Source: Demequina pelophila | Lineage (GTDB): Bacteria; Actinomycetota; Actinomycetes; Actinomycetales; Demequinaceae | DNA: 64,000 nucleotides | Direction: 5' to 3' | NCBI RefSeq assembly: GCF_000971175.1 | Contig: NZ_BBLY01000005.1 | Location: 1-64,000 of the forward strand | Part shown: positions 48,422 through 54,968 of the stretch, piece by piece | Position numbering within the stretch: the stretch's first letter is position 1 | How the letters are laid out: each line of letters begins with the position of its first letter | Made by a program: the position numbers and the translations under genes | Notes under the pieces: generated by a model | The model's database searches: none | Seen by the model: the letters and a program-made list of their open reading frames with translations, nothing else | What the model was told of the DNA's origin: nothing

Positions 48422-49479
48422 TACAGCCCCAGGACCTGCGCGGCGGCCTCGACGTCCACCGGGATGACGGTCGGGTCGAGCTCGCGCCCGCCCAGCGCGG
48501 TCGCGGTGTCCTTGAGCCCGTTGCCGGTGACGGTGCATGTGATGGTCGCGCCCTGGGGCACCTCGCCCAGCGCCGCCGCGGCCAGGAGGCCGGCGATCGG
48601 CGCCGCGGAGGCGGGCTCGACGAAGACGCCCACGTCGGCCGCGAGGCGCGCCTGGGCGTTGAGGATCTGCTGGTCGGAGACGGCGCGGATCCAGCCGCCG
48701 GACTCGTCGCGCGCGGCGACGGCGAGGTCCCACGAGGCGGGCTTGCCGATGCGGATCGCGGTCGCGATGGTCTCCGGGTCCTTGATGGGGTGGCCGGCGA
48801 CGAACGGCGCGGCGCCCGCGGCCTGCACGCCCCAGATCTTGGGACGGCGCGTGGCGTCTCCGGCCTCGAGCGCCTCCTTGAAGCCCATCCAGTAGGCGGA
48901 GATGTTGCCGGCGTTGCCCACGGGCAGCATGTGGATGTCCGGGGCGTCGCCCAGCTGGTCGACGATCTCGAAGGCCGCGGTCTTCTGGCCCTGGAGGCGG
49001 TACGGGTTGACCGAGTTCACCAGGGCGATGGGGTACTCCTCCGACAGCGTGCGCACGATGTCGAGGCACTCGTCGAAGTTGCCGTCCACCTGGACCAGGT
49101 CCGCGCCGTGGACGATCGCCTGAGCCATCTTGCCCGCGGCGATCTTGCCCTGCGGGATCATGACGACGCAGCGCAGGCCCGCGTGGGCCGCGTACGCTGC
49201 GGCGGAGGCGGACGTGTTGCCGGTCGACGCGCACACCACGGTGTGGTCGCCGTCCTTGACCACCTGGGTCACGGCGGACGTCATGCCGCGGTCCTTGAAG
49301 GACCCGGTGGGGTTCATGCCCTCGACCTTGACGAACACGTCCGCGCCCACCTCGGCGGAGATGGACGGCGCGGGCACCAGCGGCGTGCCGCCCTCGCCCA
49401 GCGTGATGATCCGGTCCGACTCCTCGAACGGCAGGCGGTCCAGGTACTCCCGGACGATGCCCCTCCACACGTGCGCCAT
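48421..49479 (-). CDS. thrC: Threonine synthase
   Basis: PLP enzyme of 352 residues converting O-phosphohomoserine to threonine. The PLP lysine is Lys62 in GSFKDRGM. The phosphate-binding loop is VGNAGNIS. It is the short class II form typical of actinobacteria. Both ends overlap neighbours by one base as TAATG (hom/thrC and thrC/thrB), giving stepwise translational coupling. Confidence 0.96.
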
Positions 49480-50765
49480 TACTCTCCCTCGATCCTCAGC
49501 ACGGACTTGATCTCCGCGACCGCGGCGGAGGCGCGCAGGTCCTCGACCGTCGCACGCAGGTCGCCCTCGGGCGCGCGGTACGTCGACAGGATCAGGCCGG
49601 CGTGGCTCTGGCCCGGCACCTGGCGGACCAGCTCGATGCCCACGCGGTGGCGGGCGAACACCTCGGCGACGGAGGACAGCACGCCCGGGCGGTCCTCGAC
49701 GGCCATCCGCACGCAGTAGCGCGTGTCCGCCTTGTCCATGGGCAGCACCTCGTGCTCGGCGTAGTTCGACTCGAGCGGGCCCTTGCTGCCGAGCGCCTTG
49801 TGACGCGCCACCGAGACCAGGTCGCCCAGGACGGCCGATGCGGTGGGCGTCCCGCCCGCGCCCTGACCGTAGAACATGAGGCCGCCGGCGGCCTCCGCCT
49901 CGATGAAGACCGCGTTGAACGCGCCGTGGACGCCGGCGAGCGGGTGCGTGCCGGGCACGAGCGCCGGGTGGACGCGGACGGCCACGCCCTCGGGCGTGCG
50001 CTCGGCGATCGCGAGCAGCTTGACCACCTGGCCGGTCTCGCGCGCGGCGATCACGTCGTCCGCGGTGATCGCGGAGATGCCCTCGCAGAACACGTCCTCG
50101 AGCGCCACCCGCTGGTGGAACGCGAGGGAGGCCAGGATCGCGGCCTTGGCCGCCGCATCGTGCCCCTCGACGTCCGCCGTGGGGTCGGCCTCGGCGTAGC
50201 CGAGCTCCTGCGCCTGCTTGAGCGCGACCTCGTAGTCGAGGCCGTTGGTGGTCATCTCGTCGAGGATGTAGTTGGTGGTGCCGTTGACGATGCCCAGGAT
50301 GCGGGTGATGTGGTCGCCCGCGAGCGACTCGCGCACCGGGCGCACCAGAGGGATCGCGCCGGCGACGGCGGCCTCGAAGTAGAGGTCCACGTTGGCGGCG
50401 TCCGCCGCCTCGTAGAGCTCCGGGCCGTGCGCGGCGAGCAGCGCCTTGTTCGCGGTCACCACGGAGGCGCCCGAGGCGATCGCCTCGAGGATCAGGGTGC
50501 GCGCCGGCTCGATCCCGCCCATGAGCTCGACCACGACGTCGGAGCGGGCGATGAGGCCCGAGGCGTCGTCGGTGAGCAGCTCACGCGGGATGTGGGGGCC
50601 GCGGTCCTTCGAGGTGTCGCGGACGTAGATGCCGCTGATCTCGAGGGGCGCGCCCACGCGCGCGGCAAGGTCCTCGCCCGGCCGGGTGAGGAGGCGCACC
50701 ACCTCCGCTCCCACGGTTCCGGGGCCGAGCACGGCGATCTTCACGGGCTTCACGGCGTCAGACAC
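49479..50765 (-). CDS. hom: Homoserine dehydrogenase
   Basis: NAD(P)-dependent enzyme of 428 residues that reduces aspartate semialdehyde to homoserine. The Rossmann motif is [22 protein letters not shown] and the C-terminal ACT domain ([20 protein letters not shown]) are present, so threonine feedback is expected. GTG at 50765 is chosen from the TAGGCT box 7 bases upstream and the absence of a ribosome-binding site. Confidence 0.96.
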
Positions 50766-50836: not shown

Positions 50837-50989
50837 CTACTCGGCCTTGCGCGGGATGACGACCTCGGCCGGGATGTCGACCGGCGAGCCGGCCTCGCCC
50901 GGGTCGTCGTCGACCTCGTCCTCGTAGCCCTCGCCGGGGTCGGGGGTGTGATTCCAGATGCTGGGCTTGTCCTGCGGCTGCTCGGGCAT
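50837..50989 (-). CDS. Small acidic protein, unknown
   Basis: Protein of 50 residues (starts MPEQPQDKPSIWNHTPDPG, ends PAEVVIPRKAE). It is too short to be confident from composition, but CGGAG lies 5 bases before the ATG and the frame fills the gap exactly. The acidic middle (EDEVDDDPGEAG) suggests a disordered peptide. No function can be assigned. Confidence 0.5.
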   Translation of the reverse strand: MPEQPQDKPSIWNHTPDPGEGYEDEVDDDPGEAGSPVDIPAEVVIPRKAE

Positions 50990-51101: not shown

Positions 51102-53096
51102 TCAGCGCGCGAGCTCCGAGAAGAGCCCCGGGCTCCCCGTCCACTCGGCCGAGCCGCCTCGCCGGGCCAGGACATCCCAGCCTCCAGAGACCTCGCCCAC
51201 GACGTCCCAGGCCTGGCCGTCGGGGGAGTGCAGCACCTTGAGCGGGTCGCTCGGACCGCGGGTCGGATCGATCAGGTAGAAGCCGTCGCCCGCACCGATA
51301 GCCTGCAGAATCGTCCCGTGGTCACCGGTCATCGGACTCCAATCCACGCCGTCGTCGGAGAACCACGTGCCGCCATCGGTGTACGCGACCACACCGGGCG
51401 CTCCGACGAGCACGATCCAGACCTGGGAATCGAAGTCCGTCGAAACAGCCTCGCCCTCCCTGAGCACGGTCACCGCGTGCTCGCCCTCGGCCCACGCAGC
51501 CGTGTCGCCCCACACGCCCGCGCAGCCCGTCCGATCCCACCCGAGCCCGTTGACCACGGTGCCGCCCACGTCGGTCACCTGCCACGCGGCCCCGTCCGCC
51601 GACCAGGCGTACCAGTAGCCGCGCGGGCCGCCCTCTCCGCACGCGAGGTATTTTCGGCCCTGCACCTCGAGACCTTGCACCACTCCACCGGCGGCCCGCT
51701 GCATCGCCTGGATGTCGAGTCCGCCTCGTGACGTCAGCACGCCTTCCTCACGCGTCGCTGGATCGACGGTCCCGCCGGATGGCTCGCTCACCGGAGGGGG
51801 CGTCGATACCGCACCGCCCGGCGCGGATTCGATCCGCCAGAGCGCCAGCCGGCCTGGCTGAGGGGCCTCGTCCGCCCCTGTCAGGACCAGGTACGTGCCA
51901 TCGTGGGCGGCGCCACTCACCGCGACGGTGGCGCCGCCCAGCTGCACCGCCCGTCCGGGCTCGCCGTAGCGCGCCAGGCCGACCTGGATGGCGCGGCCGG
52001 CGGCAGGGTCCGCGACCAACGCTCCCGCGCTTCCGATCGCGACCCTGTGCGGGGCGTCCGGCGCCTCGTCTCGGTCGACCCTCGATCCGGGCAGAGGCGC
52101 CGACGCGAGGACGCCGTCCGGCGTGAGCAGGGAGTACGACGGCGATCCCGAGTCCCCGGTCCACACCGCACGCCCGTCGCGTCGCACGAGCGTTCCGCCG
52201 TGCCCCTCCACCGAGCCGAGGACGGTCCATCCCGCACCGTCGCCGCTGAACCTCACCATGAAGGGATCGTCGGAACCGCCCGTCGGCTCAACGGTGTAGT
52301 AGCCGTCCTCCGTGCCGATCACGTCGACGATGGATCGGTGGTCCGCATCGCCAAGGCGCAACCAGTGGAGGCCGCTGCCGCCTTCGCTCACGAGCCAATG
52401 TGCATCACCCGCGAGGACCAGCGCCCCCGGCCCGCCGACCGCTACGGCGCCGACGCCGTCCGCGAACTCACGGGTCGAGGTCTCGCTCCCGTGCCGCACG
52501 GTCAATACGTGGGTCTCGCTCCTCGGATCGAGAGACACTGCCGTGTCGCCCCAGACTCCAGGACAGCCGAACCCCGCGGGACTCTGCACCGTCCAGGGAA
52601 CGTCCACGCGTTCCCAGCTCGCTGCGTCCTCCGAGGTTGCGTACCAGAAACCGTCGATGTCACCTCCGCACATCACGTATTGGCCGGCCGCGTGCTCGAG
52701 ACCGACGAGGTTCTCGCGGATGCGACCTTCCTCATCCTCCTCGACGACGATCCAGTCGGGCACCGCGAGCTCCGCCGTCGACTCGATGACGCCGTCGTGC
52801 TGCGGCCAGTACTCCTCGGCTCCGACGTCCCCGACGGGGTCCGGCACGAGGTCGTCCACAGCGGGCTCGGGCGGCGCTTGCGAGACGCGCAGCAGCACGA
52901 GCGCGGCCACCGCTACGAGCACCGCGCTCACCGCTGCGACCAGCGCGGGCATCAGTCGCCCGCGCCGAGCCCGCGGCGTCTCGACCGTCGCCTCCGCCCG
53001 AGCGGCGCGCGCGACCGCCTCGTCGACCGACACGGGCGCCACGGCCGCTTCGGCGTGCCGTGCGTAGGCCCGAACCTGCTCCTCGAGCGACATCAT
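51102..53096 (-). CDS. Membrane-anchored anti-sigma-like protein with duplicated propeller module
   Basis: Protein of 664 residues. A cytoplasmic segment of ~48 residues precedes one membrane helix (~49-71) and a long outer domain. The outer part holds two related modules, ~134-315 and ~470-664. Both share the order WYA-S-D-A-W, GCxGVWGDTA, a blade GDxTIL/ SIVDVIG and D-x-F/P-hxF-S-x-D-G. This resembles BNR/sialidase-type repeats. The gene overlaps the ECF sigma gene by 4 bases (ATGA). No zinc anti-sigma motif is in the N-terminus. An anti-sigma or sensor role is inferred from position. Confidence 0.7.
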   Translation of the reverse strand: MMSLEEQVRAYARHAEAAVAPVSVDEAVARAARAEATVETPRARRGRLMPALVAAVSAVLVAVAALVLLRVSQAPPEPAVDDLVPDPVGDVGAEEYWPQHDGVIESTAELAVPDWIVVEEDEEGRIRENLVGLEHAAGQYVMCGGDIDGFWYATSEDAASWERVDVPWTVQSPAGFGCPGVWGDTAVSLDPRSETHVLTVRHGSETSTREFADGVGAVAVGGPGALVLAGDAHWLVSEGGSGLHWLRLGDADHRSIVDVIGTEDGYYTVEPTGGSDDPFMVRFSGDGAGWTVLGSVEGHGGTLVRRDGRAVWTGDSGSPSYSLLTPDGVLASAPLPGSRVDRDEAPDAPHRVAIGSAGALVADPAAGRAIQVGLARYGEPGRAVQLGGATVAVSGAAHDGTYLVLTGADEAPQPGRLALWRIESAPGGAVSTPPPVSEPSGGTVDPATREEGVLTSRGGLDIQAMQRAAGGVVQGLEVQGRKYLACGEGGPRGYWYAWSADGAAWQVTDVGGTVVNGLGWDRTGCAGVWGDTAAWAEGEHAVTVLREGEAVSTDFDSQVWIVLVGAPGVVAYTDGGTWFSDDGVDWSPMTGDHGTILQAIGAGDGFYLIDPTRGPSDPLKVLHSPDGQAWDVVGEVSGGWDVLARRGGSAEWTGSPGLFSELAR

Positions 53097-53551
53097 GACT
53101 CCACCCCCAGCCTCCGACGCAGCGCCTCGAGCCCACGTCTCACATGCGTCTCGACCGTCGAGGGCGATACGTCGAGCAGCTCCCCCACCTCGCGGTACGT
53201 CCATCCGAGCCCTGTCGCGAGCACCACGCACATCCGCTGCCGTTCGGGCAGGCGCGACAGGGCGGCAGGCAGCCCCGGCTCTACCTCAGGCAGCCCCTCG
53301 GGCGGCAACGCGGCCATCACCGGCGTCCGCCGGCGGATCCGTCGGGTCTTCGACTCCCCGACCCGGAACAGGTACCCGACAGGGTTGTCCATGGCGCGCA
53401 CGCGGTCCCAGTGCTCCCACGCATATGCGAGCGCCTCGGCCGTCGCGTCGCGGCCGTCGACATCGCCGTACCGCGCCCCGAAGGCGACGCGAAGCCGGGG
53501 TTCCGCGACGGCGTGGAAGTCCCCGAACGTCAGCCTCTCGACCTCGAGCAT
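53093..53551 (-). CDS. ECF-type RNA polymerase sigma factor
   Basis: Compact sigma factor of 152 residues. Region 2 is visible as DATAEALAYAWEHWDRVRAMDNPVG split over its helices, and region 4 as LGWTYREVGELLDVSPSTVE with the helix-turn-helix. It belongs to the SigE-like class of small actinobacterial ECF factors. The partner gene begins within its stop codon. Targets are unknown; no clear autoregulatory -35 is visible upstream. Confidence 0.85.
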   Translation of the reverse strand: MLEVERLTFGDFHAVAEPRLRVAFGARYGDVDGRDATAEALAYAWEHWDRVRAMDNPVGYLFRVGESKTRRIRRRTPVMAALPPEGLPEVEPGLPAALSRLPERQRMCVVLATGLGWTYREVGELLDVSPSTVETHVRRGLEALRRRLGVES

Positions 53552-53633: not shown

Positions 53634-54968
53634 CTACGGCGCGACGTCCCAGGAGAGCAGGTCCTCGAGGGTGTCGCGGCGGATGTGGACGTCCGCCTCG
53701 CCGTCGCGCACCGACACGACCGCGGGCCGCAGCAGCGCGTTGTAGTTGTTGGACATGGTCCGCCCGTAGGCGCCCGTCGCGGGCACCGCGAGCAGGTCGC
53801 CGCGCGAGGTGTCGCTCGGGAGCTCCACGTCCTTGACGACGATGTCCCCGCTCTCGCAGTGCTTGCCCACCACGCGCGAGCGCGCCGGCTCTGCCTCGGA
53901 GACCCGCGACGCCACGGTCGCCGTGTAGGAGGCGCCGTAGGTGATGGTCCGCATGTGGTCGCTCATGCCGCCGTCGACGGCCACGTACTGGCGCGCGCCG
54001 CCGTCCTCGAGCGCGACGTGCTTGACCACGCCCACCCGGTACAGGGTCATCCCGGCGGGGCCGGCGATCGCGCGGCCGGGCTCGATCGAGAACCGGGGCC
54101 ACGGGCCCCCGACCTTGTCGACCGCGGCGGCCACCGCATCGGCCACCCCGGCGGCGGCCCGGTGCGGGGCGAGCTCCTCGTCGTCCGGCGTGTACCGGAT
54201 CGCGAAGCCGCCGCCCAGGTCCACCTCGTCGAGCCAGATGCCCGTGTCCGCGGCGAAGGCGGCGCGCAGGCCCAGCATGCGCTCGGCGCTCTCCTGGAAC
54301 GCGTCGAGCGAGAGGATCTGCGACCCGATGTGAGTGTGGATGCCGTTGAGGCGCAGGCCCGCGGCGTCGTGGCACTCGAGCAGCGCCTCGAACGCGGCGC
54401 CGGAGGCGAGCGAGAGGCCGAACTTCTGGTCCTCGTGCGCCGTGGCGATGTACTCGTGGCCGCCCGCGTGGACGCCCGTGGTGATGCGCACCATGACCGG
54501 CGCGACCAGGTCCAGCTCGAGCGCGATCGCGTTGAGGGTCTCGATCTCCGTCATGGAGTCGACGATGATCCGGCCCACGCCCGCCTCGAGCGCGCGGCGC
54601 AGCTCCGCATCGGACTTGTTGTTGCCGTGCAGGCCGATCCGCTCGGGCGGCATCCCGCCGCGCAGCGCGATCTCGAGCTCGCCGCCGGAGGCGACGTCCA
54701 TGCACATGTCGTCCTCGAACATCCACCGGGCGATCTTGGAACTCAGCAGCGCCTTGGACGCGTAGTAGACGTCGACCTCCGCGCCGTACCGCCCGAAGGC
54801 GGCGCCGAAGCCCTCGCGGAAGGCCCGCGCGCGGCCGCGCAGGTCCTCCTCGTCGACGATGTAGAGCGGCGTTCCGTACGCGCCGGCCAGGTCGCGCACG
54901 TCGCAGCCGCCCACGGAGAGCGCGCCGTCGGCCACGCGACGGACGGTCGTCGAGAACACCTCGCCCAT
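53634..54968 (-). CDS. lysA: Diaminopimelate decarboxylase
   Basis: PLP-dependent decarboxylase of 444 residues, the last step of lysine synthesis. The PLP lysine lies in VYYASKALLSSK. Diagnostic motifs include HIGSQI, DLGGGFAIRY and EPGRAIAGPAG. The ATG at 54968 has GAGAGGA upstream and follows the argS stop by 2 bases. The enzyme competes with hom for the same aspartate branch, located 3 kb away. Confidence 0.96.
   Translation of the reverse strand: MGEVFSTTVRRVADGALSVGGCDVRDLAGAYGTPLYIVDEEDLRGRARAFREGFGAAFGRYGAEVDVYYASKALLSSKIARWMFEDDMCMDVASGGELEIALRGGMPPERIGLHGNNKSDAELRRALEAGVGRIIVDSMTEIETLNAIALELDLVAPVMVRITTGVHAGGHEYIATAHEDQKFGLSLASGAAFEALLECHDAAGLRLNGIHTHIGSQILSLDAFQESAERMLGLRAAFAADTGIWLDEVDLGGGFAIRYTPDDEELAPHRAAAGVADAVAAAVDKVGGPWPRFSIEPGRAIAGPAGMTLYRVGVVKHVALEDGGARQYVAVDGGMSDHMRTITYGASYTATVASRVSEAEPARSRVVGKHCESGDIVVKDVELPSDTSRGDLLAVPATGAYGRTMSNNYNALLRPAVVSVRDGEADVHIRRDTLEDLLSWDVAP

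What the first reader, a model, noticed from the sequence alone, without database searches (positions are those of the whole stretch)
51102..53551. ECF sigma factor paired with a propeller protein instead of a zinc anti-sigma
The 664-residue partner has anti-sigma topology (short cytoplasmic part, one helix, large outer domain), but no HxxxCxxC motif. The outside domain is an internally duplicated BNR-like module. The sensor could read polysaccharide or another extracellular ligand. The pair lies as an insert between hom and lysA.
Basis: partly seen in the sequence, partly recalled or inferred. Interest (0 to 1): 0.5.

Follow-up and report, generated by a model that had tools for sequence, protein, structure and literature searches.

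The report
Borrowed sigma switch with swappable sensor
A bacterium carries, between two amino-acid synthesis genes, a small gene switch and the membrane protein that probably holds it off; the pair looks imported from a distant group of bacteria in which the same switch is paired with many different outside sensors.

Summary
The observation mostly holds. On the minus strand a 152-aa ECF-type sigma factor (53551-53093) overlaps by 4 bp a 664-aa protein (53096-51102) with about 48 cytoplasmic residues, one membrane helix and an orphan, internally duplicated ectodomain; no zinc motif. The pair is an insert between lysA and hom, not found in congeners. That the ectodomain is a propeller is likely but unproven.

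It is not a one-off. The sigma's closest relatives (39-59% identity in 27 loci examined) are mainly Acidimicrobiia by record label. 27 of 27 have a downstream membrane-anchored partner without zinc motif. A profile of 25 of their N-termini recognises ours (25.1 bits; best of 1000 shuffles 10.0). N-terminal similarity tracks sigma similarity (Mantel r 0.40, p 0.0002); ectodomain similarity does not once a near-copy is removed. Their ectodomains include PD40 and PQQ propellers, PASTA, YkuD and FtsX-type domains. So a constant cytoplasmic clamp seems paired with interchangeable sensors, as in clostridial RsgI.

Best reading: an anti-sigma with a short, CnrY-like clamp, acquired horizontally. Binding, ligand and regulon are untested. 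The gene layout itself is ordinary: 63 of 70 SigE-family sigma loci examined in the window's order show it.

The parts
53093..53551 (-). ECF-type sigma factor, 152 aa, divergent region 2, intact region 4
   Evidence: relatives; tree
51102..53096 (-). putative transmembrane anti-sigma factor, 664 aa; its start overlaps the sigma stop (ATGA)
52953..53096 (-). cytoplasmic N-terminus, residues 1-48, two predicted helices (4-18, 24-36): proposed sigma clamp
   Evidence: profile test; co-variation; helices in a low-confidence model
52884..52952 (-). transmembrane helix, about residues 49-71
   Evidence: hydropathy; model helix 41-71
52146..52703 (-). ectodomain repeat 1, residues 132-317, with Cys143/Cys178 and one [STY]x[DN]GxxW motif (284)
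51126..51674 (-). ectodomain repeat 2, residues 475-657, with the equivalent Cys486/Cys525 and motifs at 499, 572, 580, 624
53634..54968 (-). lysA, upstream edge of the slot
50837..50989 (-). 50-aa acidic ORF before hom; probably a host slot gene (54% identical counterpart at the same place in congener G040)
49479..50765 (-). hom, downstream edge of the slot

Best explanation
A horizontally acquired ECF sigma / transmembrane anti-sigma module. The 48-residue cytoplasmic N-terminus, two short helices, holds the sigma at the membrane in the manner of class II (CnrY-type) anti-sigma factors. The ectodomain, probably one or two beta-propellers built by an internal duplication, senses an extracellular cue. 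[quoted passage not shown] Shown here: gene coupling, topology, duplication, foreign origin, conservation of the N-terminus with the sigma, and unrelated ectodomains among relatives. Inferred: binding, inhibition, propeller fold, proteolytic release. Unknown: ligand, regulon.
For: 27 of 27 loci of close relatives examined have a downstream membrane-anchored gene without zinc motif; a slightly narrower rule gives 2 of 91 for other long ORFs. N-terminal HMM from 25 of them scores ours 25.1 bits, E 1.7e-6; best of 1000 composition-matched shuffles 10.0. Leave-one-out: 24 of 26 N-termini beat all 200 of their own shuffles. Mantel on 25 loci: sigma vs N-terminus r 0.40, p 0.0002; sigma vs ectodomain r -0.007, p 0.53. 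The nearest sigma and, by a small margin (0.26 vs 0.25), the nearest N-terminus both come from L180, whose partner has a PD40 propeller. The sigma groups with 26 relatives (100/99) and L180 is its sister (97/95). GC3 is 0.87/0.85 vs 0.97-0.99 for four flanking genes. Sigma keeps 37 of 39 columns that are at least 80% conserved in 26 relatives. Class II and RsgI features: passages of PMC7406223 and PMC12203970.
Against: No binding test; adjacent genes inherited together give some co-variation without binding. With all 26 rows, including one near-copy, sigma vs ectodomain also correlates (r 0.27, p 0.003), so the contrast rests on removing L195. Two of 26 N-termini failed leave-one-out (L184, L197) and L196 passed barely. 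An M50 protease is encoded, but such matches rang in 14 of 14 control genomes, so this says little. Structure models are poor (mean pLDDT 43.2 and 39.4). A blade profile from relatives with four or more motifs did not recognise our ectodomain. No shared upstream motif was found. The 91 control ORFs may include spurious high-GC ORFs.
Confidence: 0.66

Rival explanations
1. The partner is a co-transcribed surface protein or positive co-factor whose N-terminus binds the sigma (or RNA polymerase) to activate or localise it rather than to inhibit it.
For: The sequence evidence shows pairing, not the sign of regulation. Region 2 of the sigma subfamily is divergent (below cut-off in P0001; no match at E 0.001 in 8 of 8 relatives scanned), so help from a partner is conceivable.
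Against: Membrane-tethered partners with a short cytoplasmic part and differing outer domains fit known inhibitory plans (RsgI, CnrY; passages).
Confidence: 0.15
2. The ectodomain is not a propeller but another all-beta duplicated domain.
For: Low model confidence; the full-length model gives no coherent fold match; no Pfam hit to P0002 at E 10; blade profile from relatives negative.
Against: The repeat-1 model is all-beta and its 50 listed Foldseek matches look, by title and recalled structure, like propeller proteins, though none reaches E 0.001; five motifs, the same motif four or five times in four relatives' ectodomains.
Confidence: 0.3
3. Non-functional foreign insert: the pair was acquired recently and is decaying; repeat 2 is truncated relative to repeat 1.
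For: Not found in congeners; foreign GC3; the protein ends just after the homologous core of repeat 2.
Against: Both frames intact with the 4-bp overlap kept; sigma keeps 37 of 39 conserved columns; N-terminus keeps the family profile.
Confidence: 0.12

Closest known systems
[quoted passage not shown]
   Same: Short cytoplasmic part with two helices (predicted here with low confidence), non-zinc. PMC7406223 (passages) describes CnrY's two helices, the first on sigma region 4, and set aside domains under 50 aa as possible class II.
   Different: No sequence match of P0002 to any PDB chain at E 10; CnrY has no large duplicated ectodomain (recalled); signal differs.
RsgI anti-sigma factors with SigI (Clostridium thermocellum)
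   Same: Short cytoplasmic N-terminal domain (a chimera used residues 1-54 of RsgI6), one transmembrane helix, divergent outer sensor domains (passages of PMC12203970).
   Different: SigI is a separate sigma group (recalled); no Pfam family matches P0002; no carbohydrate-binding domain recognised in P0002.
Relatives' pairs, e.g. L180 (Acidimicrobiia MAG; sigma plus PD40-propeller partner)
   Same: Sigma 59% identical, overlapping partner gene, related N-terminus, propeller ectodomain.
   Different: Ectodomain of unrelated sequence (BLASTP to P0002 aligned only residues 1-67, E 0.014).
SigE-family (TIGR02983) sigma / membrane-anchored partner pairs of the window's order
   Same: Gene order, 4-bp overlap, topology, no zinc motif (63 of 70 loci examined).
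   Different: Our sigma is below that family's cut-off (70.9 vs 141.55 bits) and falls in another branch; of 77 order-level and own-genome N-termini, 3 scored above the best shuffle with the relatives' profile, one clearly.

Membership tests
ECF / sigma70-family sigma factor | NCBI sigma70-ECF superfamily score over cut-off | tested here: met
   43.3 vs 42.9 bits, narrowly
ECF / sigma70-family sigma factor | Region 4 helix-turn-helix | tested here: met
   Sigma70_r4_2 55.3 vs 25.7 bits
ECF / sigma70-family sigma factor | Region 2 (PF04542) over cut-off | tested here: not met
   12.7 vs 24 bits; no match at E 0.001 in 8 of 8 relatives, although the region has conserved columns among relatives
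SigE family TIGR02983 | Score over curated cut-off | tested here: not met
   70.9 vs 141.55 bits; 8 relatives 55.5-80.1
Class I anti-sigma with zinc motif | HxxxCxxC in the cytoplasmic part | tested here: not met
   No Cys in residues 1-142
Class II (CnrY-like) anti-sigma | Cytoplasmic part under about 50 residues | tested here: met
   About 48 residues before the helix; length hint from passages
Class II (CnrY-like) anti-sigma | Two helices wrapping the sigma | tested here: inconclusive
   Helices 4-18 and 24-36 in a single-sequence model, block pLDDT 52-62; no complex modelled
Class II (CnrY-like) anti-sigma | Binding and inhibition of the cognate sigma | not testable with these tools
   Needs experiment
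BNR / Asp-box repeat protein | Pfam match to a BNR or propeller family | tested here: not met
   None for P0002 or for either half at E up to 10
BNR / Asp-box repeat protein | Canonical SxDxGxxW box (recalled) | tested here: inconclusive
   Only the shorter [STY]x[DN]GxxW form was counted, five times
Beta-propeller | Closed ring of four-stranded blades | tested here: inconclusive
RsgI | RsgI N-terminal domain by profile | tested here: not met
   No Pfam family matches P0002 at E up to 10; that Pfam holds an RsgI model is recalled

The most novel reading that the evidence does not exclude
The pair belongs to an ECF group, centred on Acidimicrobiia, with a divergent region 2, in which a constant clamp of about 45 residues stays with its sigma while the outer sensor is exchanged by recombination (propellers of several types, PASTA, L,D-transpeptidase, FtsX-type, Germane). 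It would be an RsgI-like plug-in sensing platform outside the SigI system, mobile between classes of bacteria.
Probability: 0.45. Interest if true: 0.6.

Novelty: new variant of a known kind. Interest (0 to 1): 0.42.

Why it matters
If the constant-clamp/exchangeable-sensor reading is right, the interface between sigma and N-terminus can be solved once and used to predict signalling partners across many genomes, and ectodomains such as PASTA, YkuD and propellers become a list of candidate envelope signals for a poorly studied class of bacteria. The window's pair is a natural test case: a transplanted module in an unrelated genus, where its targets must have been rewired or brought along.

Tried and rejected
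Orphan ectodomain searches: P0002 against 99 genomes, own included, 396 genomes of the order, own included (apart from itself only one 50-residue match at E 9.6e-4, residues 37-86, spanning the membrane segment), plasmids, 84,980 species by peptide patterns; the two-repeat profile against 396 genomes of the order and 396 of the phylum, own included; PDB sequences (the latter gave five chance-level hits, best E 0.44). No ectodomain relative was found. The genome samples do not cover all species.

Rejected: that the non-zinc layout is itself unusual. Rejected: that repeat 2 goes on in another frame; only 112 bases separate the stop from the next ORF (read by eye). Not supported: a blade profile from four relatives gave P0002 no significant score, and motif-preserving shuffles reached 24.7 bits. 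Not found: a shared upstream 6-mer in 28 sigma loci; the commonest is in 10, shuffles reach 13. Repeats that would clearly mark a mobile element were not seen among those listed around the slot. Foldseek on the full-length model was incoherent.

Literature: ten searches of an open-licence library. I saw listings, and passages of three papers. No listed title concerns propeller anti-sigmas or sigma/anti-sigma pairs of Acidimicrobiia; one search returned no paper, three and one, none of them opened. The main ECF classification paper and the actinobacterial survey were not held, so prior description of this group cannot be ruled out.

Full report
Anatomy. The minus strand reads argS, lysA, sigma, partner, a 50-aa ORF, hom, thrC, thrB (flanking genes named by reading the translations, not by profile). 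The sigma stop and the partner start share ATGA. The sigma has a clear region 4 and a region 2 below Pfam's cut-off (12.7 vs 24 bits). The partner has about 48 residues, a hydrophobic helix, a proline-rich linker and about 590 outer residues, with no family match (two PHROGs at E 0.1 and 0.49 are chance level). Two stretches, residues 132-317 and 475-657, are 41% identical. Each holds a pair of cysteines at equivalent places (143/178 and 486/525), which I infer to be disulfides and so a further sign that the domain lies outside.

The slot. hom was found in 44 of 44 genomes of the genus, own included. I fetched the DNA upstream of hom in 40 of 43 congeners (not G007, G009, G041). lysA and hom were both present in 37 of 40, at distances from 39 bp (G005) to 4,946 bp (G019); no fetched stretch held a tblastn match to this sigma or partner at E 0.001. 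So the spacing between lysA and hom is variable in this genus, and other genes often sit there (ORF listing, output cut, read by eye). One congener, G019, holds a different sigma (regions 2 and 4 over Pfam cut-offs) overlapping a single-helix protein gene in the same slot; phmmer linked it weakly to ours (E 3.5e-4).

Origin. In 98 other genomes of relatives, matches at E 1e-8 occurred in 7, none above 38% identity. In 84,980 species, 22 loci encode a relative; over most of the length the best are 59, 58 and 56% identical, from assemblies labelled Acidimicrobiia. In a phylum sample of 396 genomes, 33 (own included) match at E 1e-13, and the other 32 are of the same phylum but another class. In a tree of 60 sigmas ours falls with 26 relatives (100/99) and is sister to L180 (97/95); the bootstrap had not fully settled, rows were chosen by similarity searches, and one partial row (L031) was dropped. 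Of the 22 records, 14 are labelled Acidimicrobiia or below, five only 'Actinomycetes' or 'Actinobacteria', and one each Streptosporangiaceae, Acidobacteria and Solirubrobacterales; all 22 are metagenome-assembled and can be misbinned. GC3 is 0.87 and 0.85 for the pair against 0.97-0.99 for lysA, hom, thrC and argS. Codon usage also differs, but those four genes form the reference, so I weigh only GC3; no genome-wide background was taken. Together these support horizontal acquisition; the donor is not identified.

The layout is common. For SigE-family (TIGR02983) loci over the cut-off in relatives I examined 70: 30 supplied by the tool and 40 that I picked from its list without randomising. 63 of 70 have a downstream gene of at least 100 aa starting within -40 to +60 bp and bearing a hydrophobic helix that begins at residue 25-110; 52 of the 63 overlap by 4 bp, 0 of 63 have HxxxCxxC before the helix, and the helix starts at a median of residue 46. 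Five of the other seven have a different downstream ORF by this rule, and two have none in range, one of them at a contig end. Genomes are unevenly represented and some rows are near-copies. The same rule on 91 other long ORFs gave 2. Of 18 further loci in the same table, 15 have such a partner, ours among them. Of six other own-genome sigma hits examined there (one search lists 21 region-4 hits, ours included), four have non-zinc partners (L004, L006, L008, L009), one a zinc partner (L003), one neither (L005). Pfam recognises few ectodomains in this wider set of 77 (P0002 included): for example Gmad2 and Germane in three each, Kelch in one, glycosyl hydrolase 62 in one.

The clamp. I examined 27 loci of close relatives: 19 of 22 (L199-L201 left out) and 8 of the 19 new loci. 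All 27 have a downstream gene with a membrane helix and no HxxxCxxC in the first 120 residues by a slightly wider rule (within 100 bp, helix at 20-110); five of the 27 show a further, weaker hydrophobic stretch and four run off the fetched DNA. A profile of 25 N-termini (L208 and L209 dropped as most distant) scored our residues 1-48 at 25.1 bits, the best of 1000 shuffles at 10.0; of 77 order-level and own-genome partner N-termini L163 scored 17.5 and L131 and L164 10.5, the rest below the best shuffle. So the N-terminus follows the sigma subfamily. The Mantel test agrees: r 0.40 for sigma vs N-terminus and -0.007 for sigma vs ectodomain after removing L195, a near-copy of L193; with it the figures are 0.47 and 0.27, both significant. 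N-termini were cut at 60 residues and similarity was measured by local scores, which are noisy for unrelated ectodomains.

The sensor. In the 27 ectodomains Pfam finds, over the curated cut-off: PD40 (L180), Reg_prop (L184), PQQ_2 (L205), PASTA (L193), YkuD and PG_binding_1 (L197), FtsX_ECD (L202), META (L190), Germane (L189); 15 of 27 had no family at E 0.01. The [STY]x[DN]GxxW motif occurs 22 times in the 27, against 0.45 expected, four or five times each in L184, L185, L188 and L198, and five times in P0002. By Pfam or by four or more motifs, 6 of 27 look propeller-like (L180, L184, L185, L188, L198, L205). For P0002 itself the evidence is indirect: an all-beta repeat-1 model at mean pLDDT 43 whose listed Foldseek matches look like propeller proteins, best E 0.0034, and no blade-level match to the relatives. 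Two propellers, or one complete and one truncated, are possible.

Mechanism. Known analogues are CnrY, whose first helix binds sigma region 4 (passage of PMC7406223; that the second helix meets region 2 is recalled), and RsgI, whose outer domain binds substrate, whose helix is cut by RseP and whose N-terminal fragment is degraded by ClpXP (passages of PMC12203970). The P0002 helix contains VAA sequences of the type named there, but it is alanine-rich, so I give this no weight. A review of non-canonical ECFs (passages of PMC8999054) describes actinobacterial ECF48, ECF52 and ECF53, where sigma and membrane part are fused; the present pair is two genes.

Verdict. A real, probably functional sigma/anti-sigma module with a non-zinc clamp and an orphan sensor, imported into this genus. 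The layout is ordinary; what is worth following is the group of relatives in which one clamp seems to serve many sensors.

Noticed in passing
L106:1591-3029 (congener G019, lysA-hom slot): A different sigma-factor gene overlapping a preceding single-helix protein gene occupies the same slot in another species of the genus.
   Followed up: partly
lysA-hom interval, loci L070-L109: The interval varies from 39 bp to 4.9 kb among 37 congeners and often holds other genes, for example an NAD-binding protein diverging from an HxlR-like regulator and a low-molecular-weight phosphatase-like gene (named by eye).
   Followed up: partly
L004, L006, L008, L009 (own genome): Four more sigma genes with coupled non-zinc membrane partners in the same genome.
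   Followed up: partly
window 50837-50989: A 50-aa acidic ORF directly before hom; of 40 congener stretches only G040 gave a tblastn counterpart (54% identity) at E 0.001. No Pfam match.
   Followed up: no
relatives' sigmas L180-L198, L202-L208: Sigma region 2 is not recognised by Pfam at E 0.001 in the 8 relatives scanned, yet has conserved columns within the group (for example W45-E46-H47 and M54, N56-P57, G59-Y60-L61), suggesting a distinct ECF group.
   Followed up: partly
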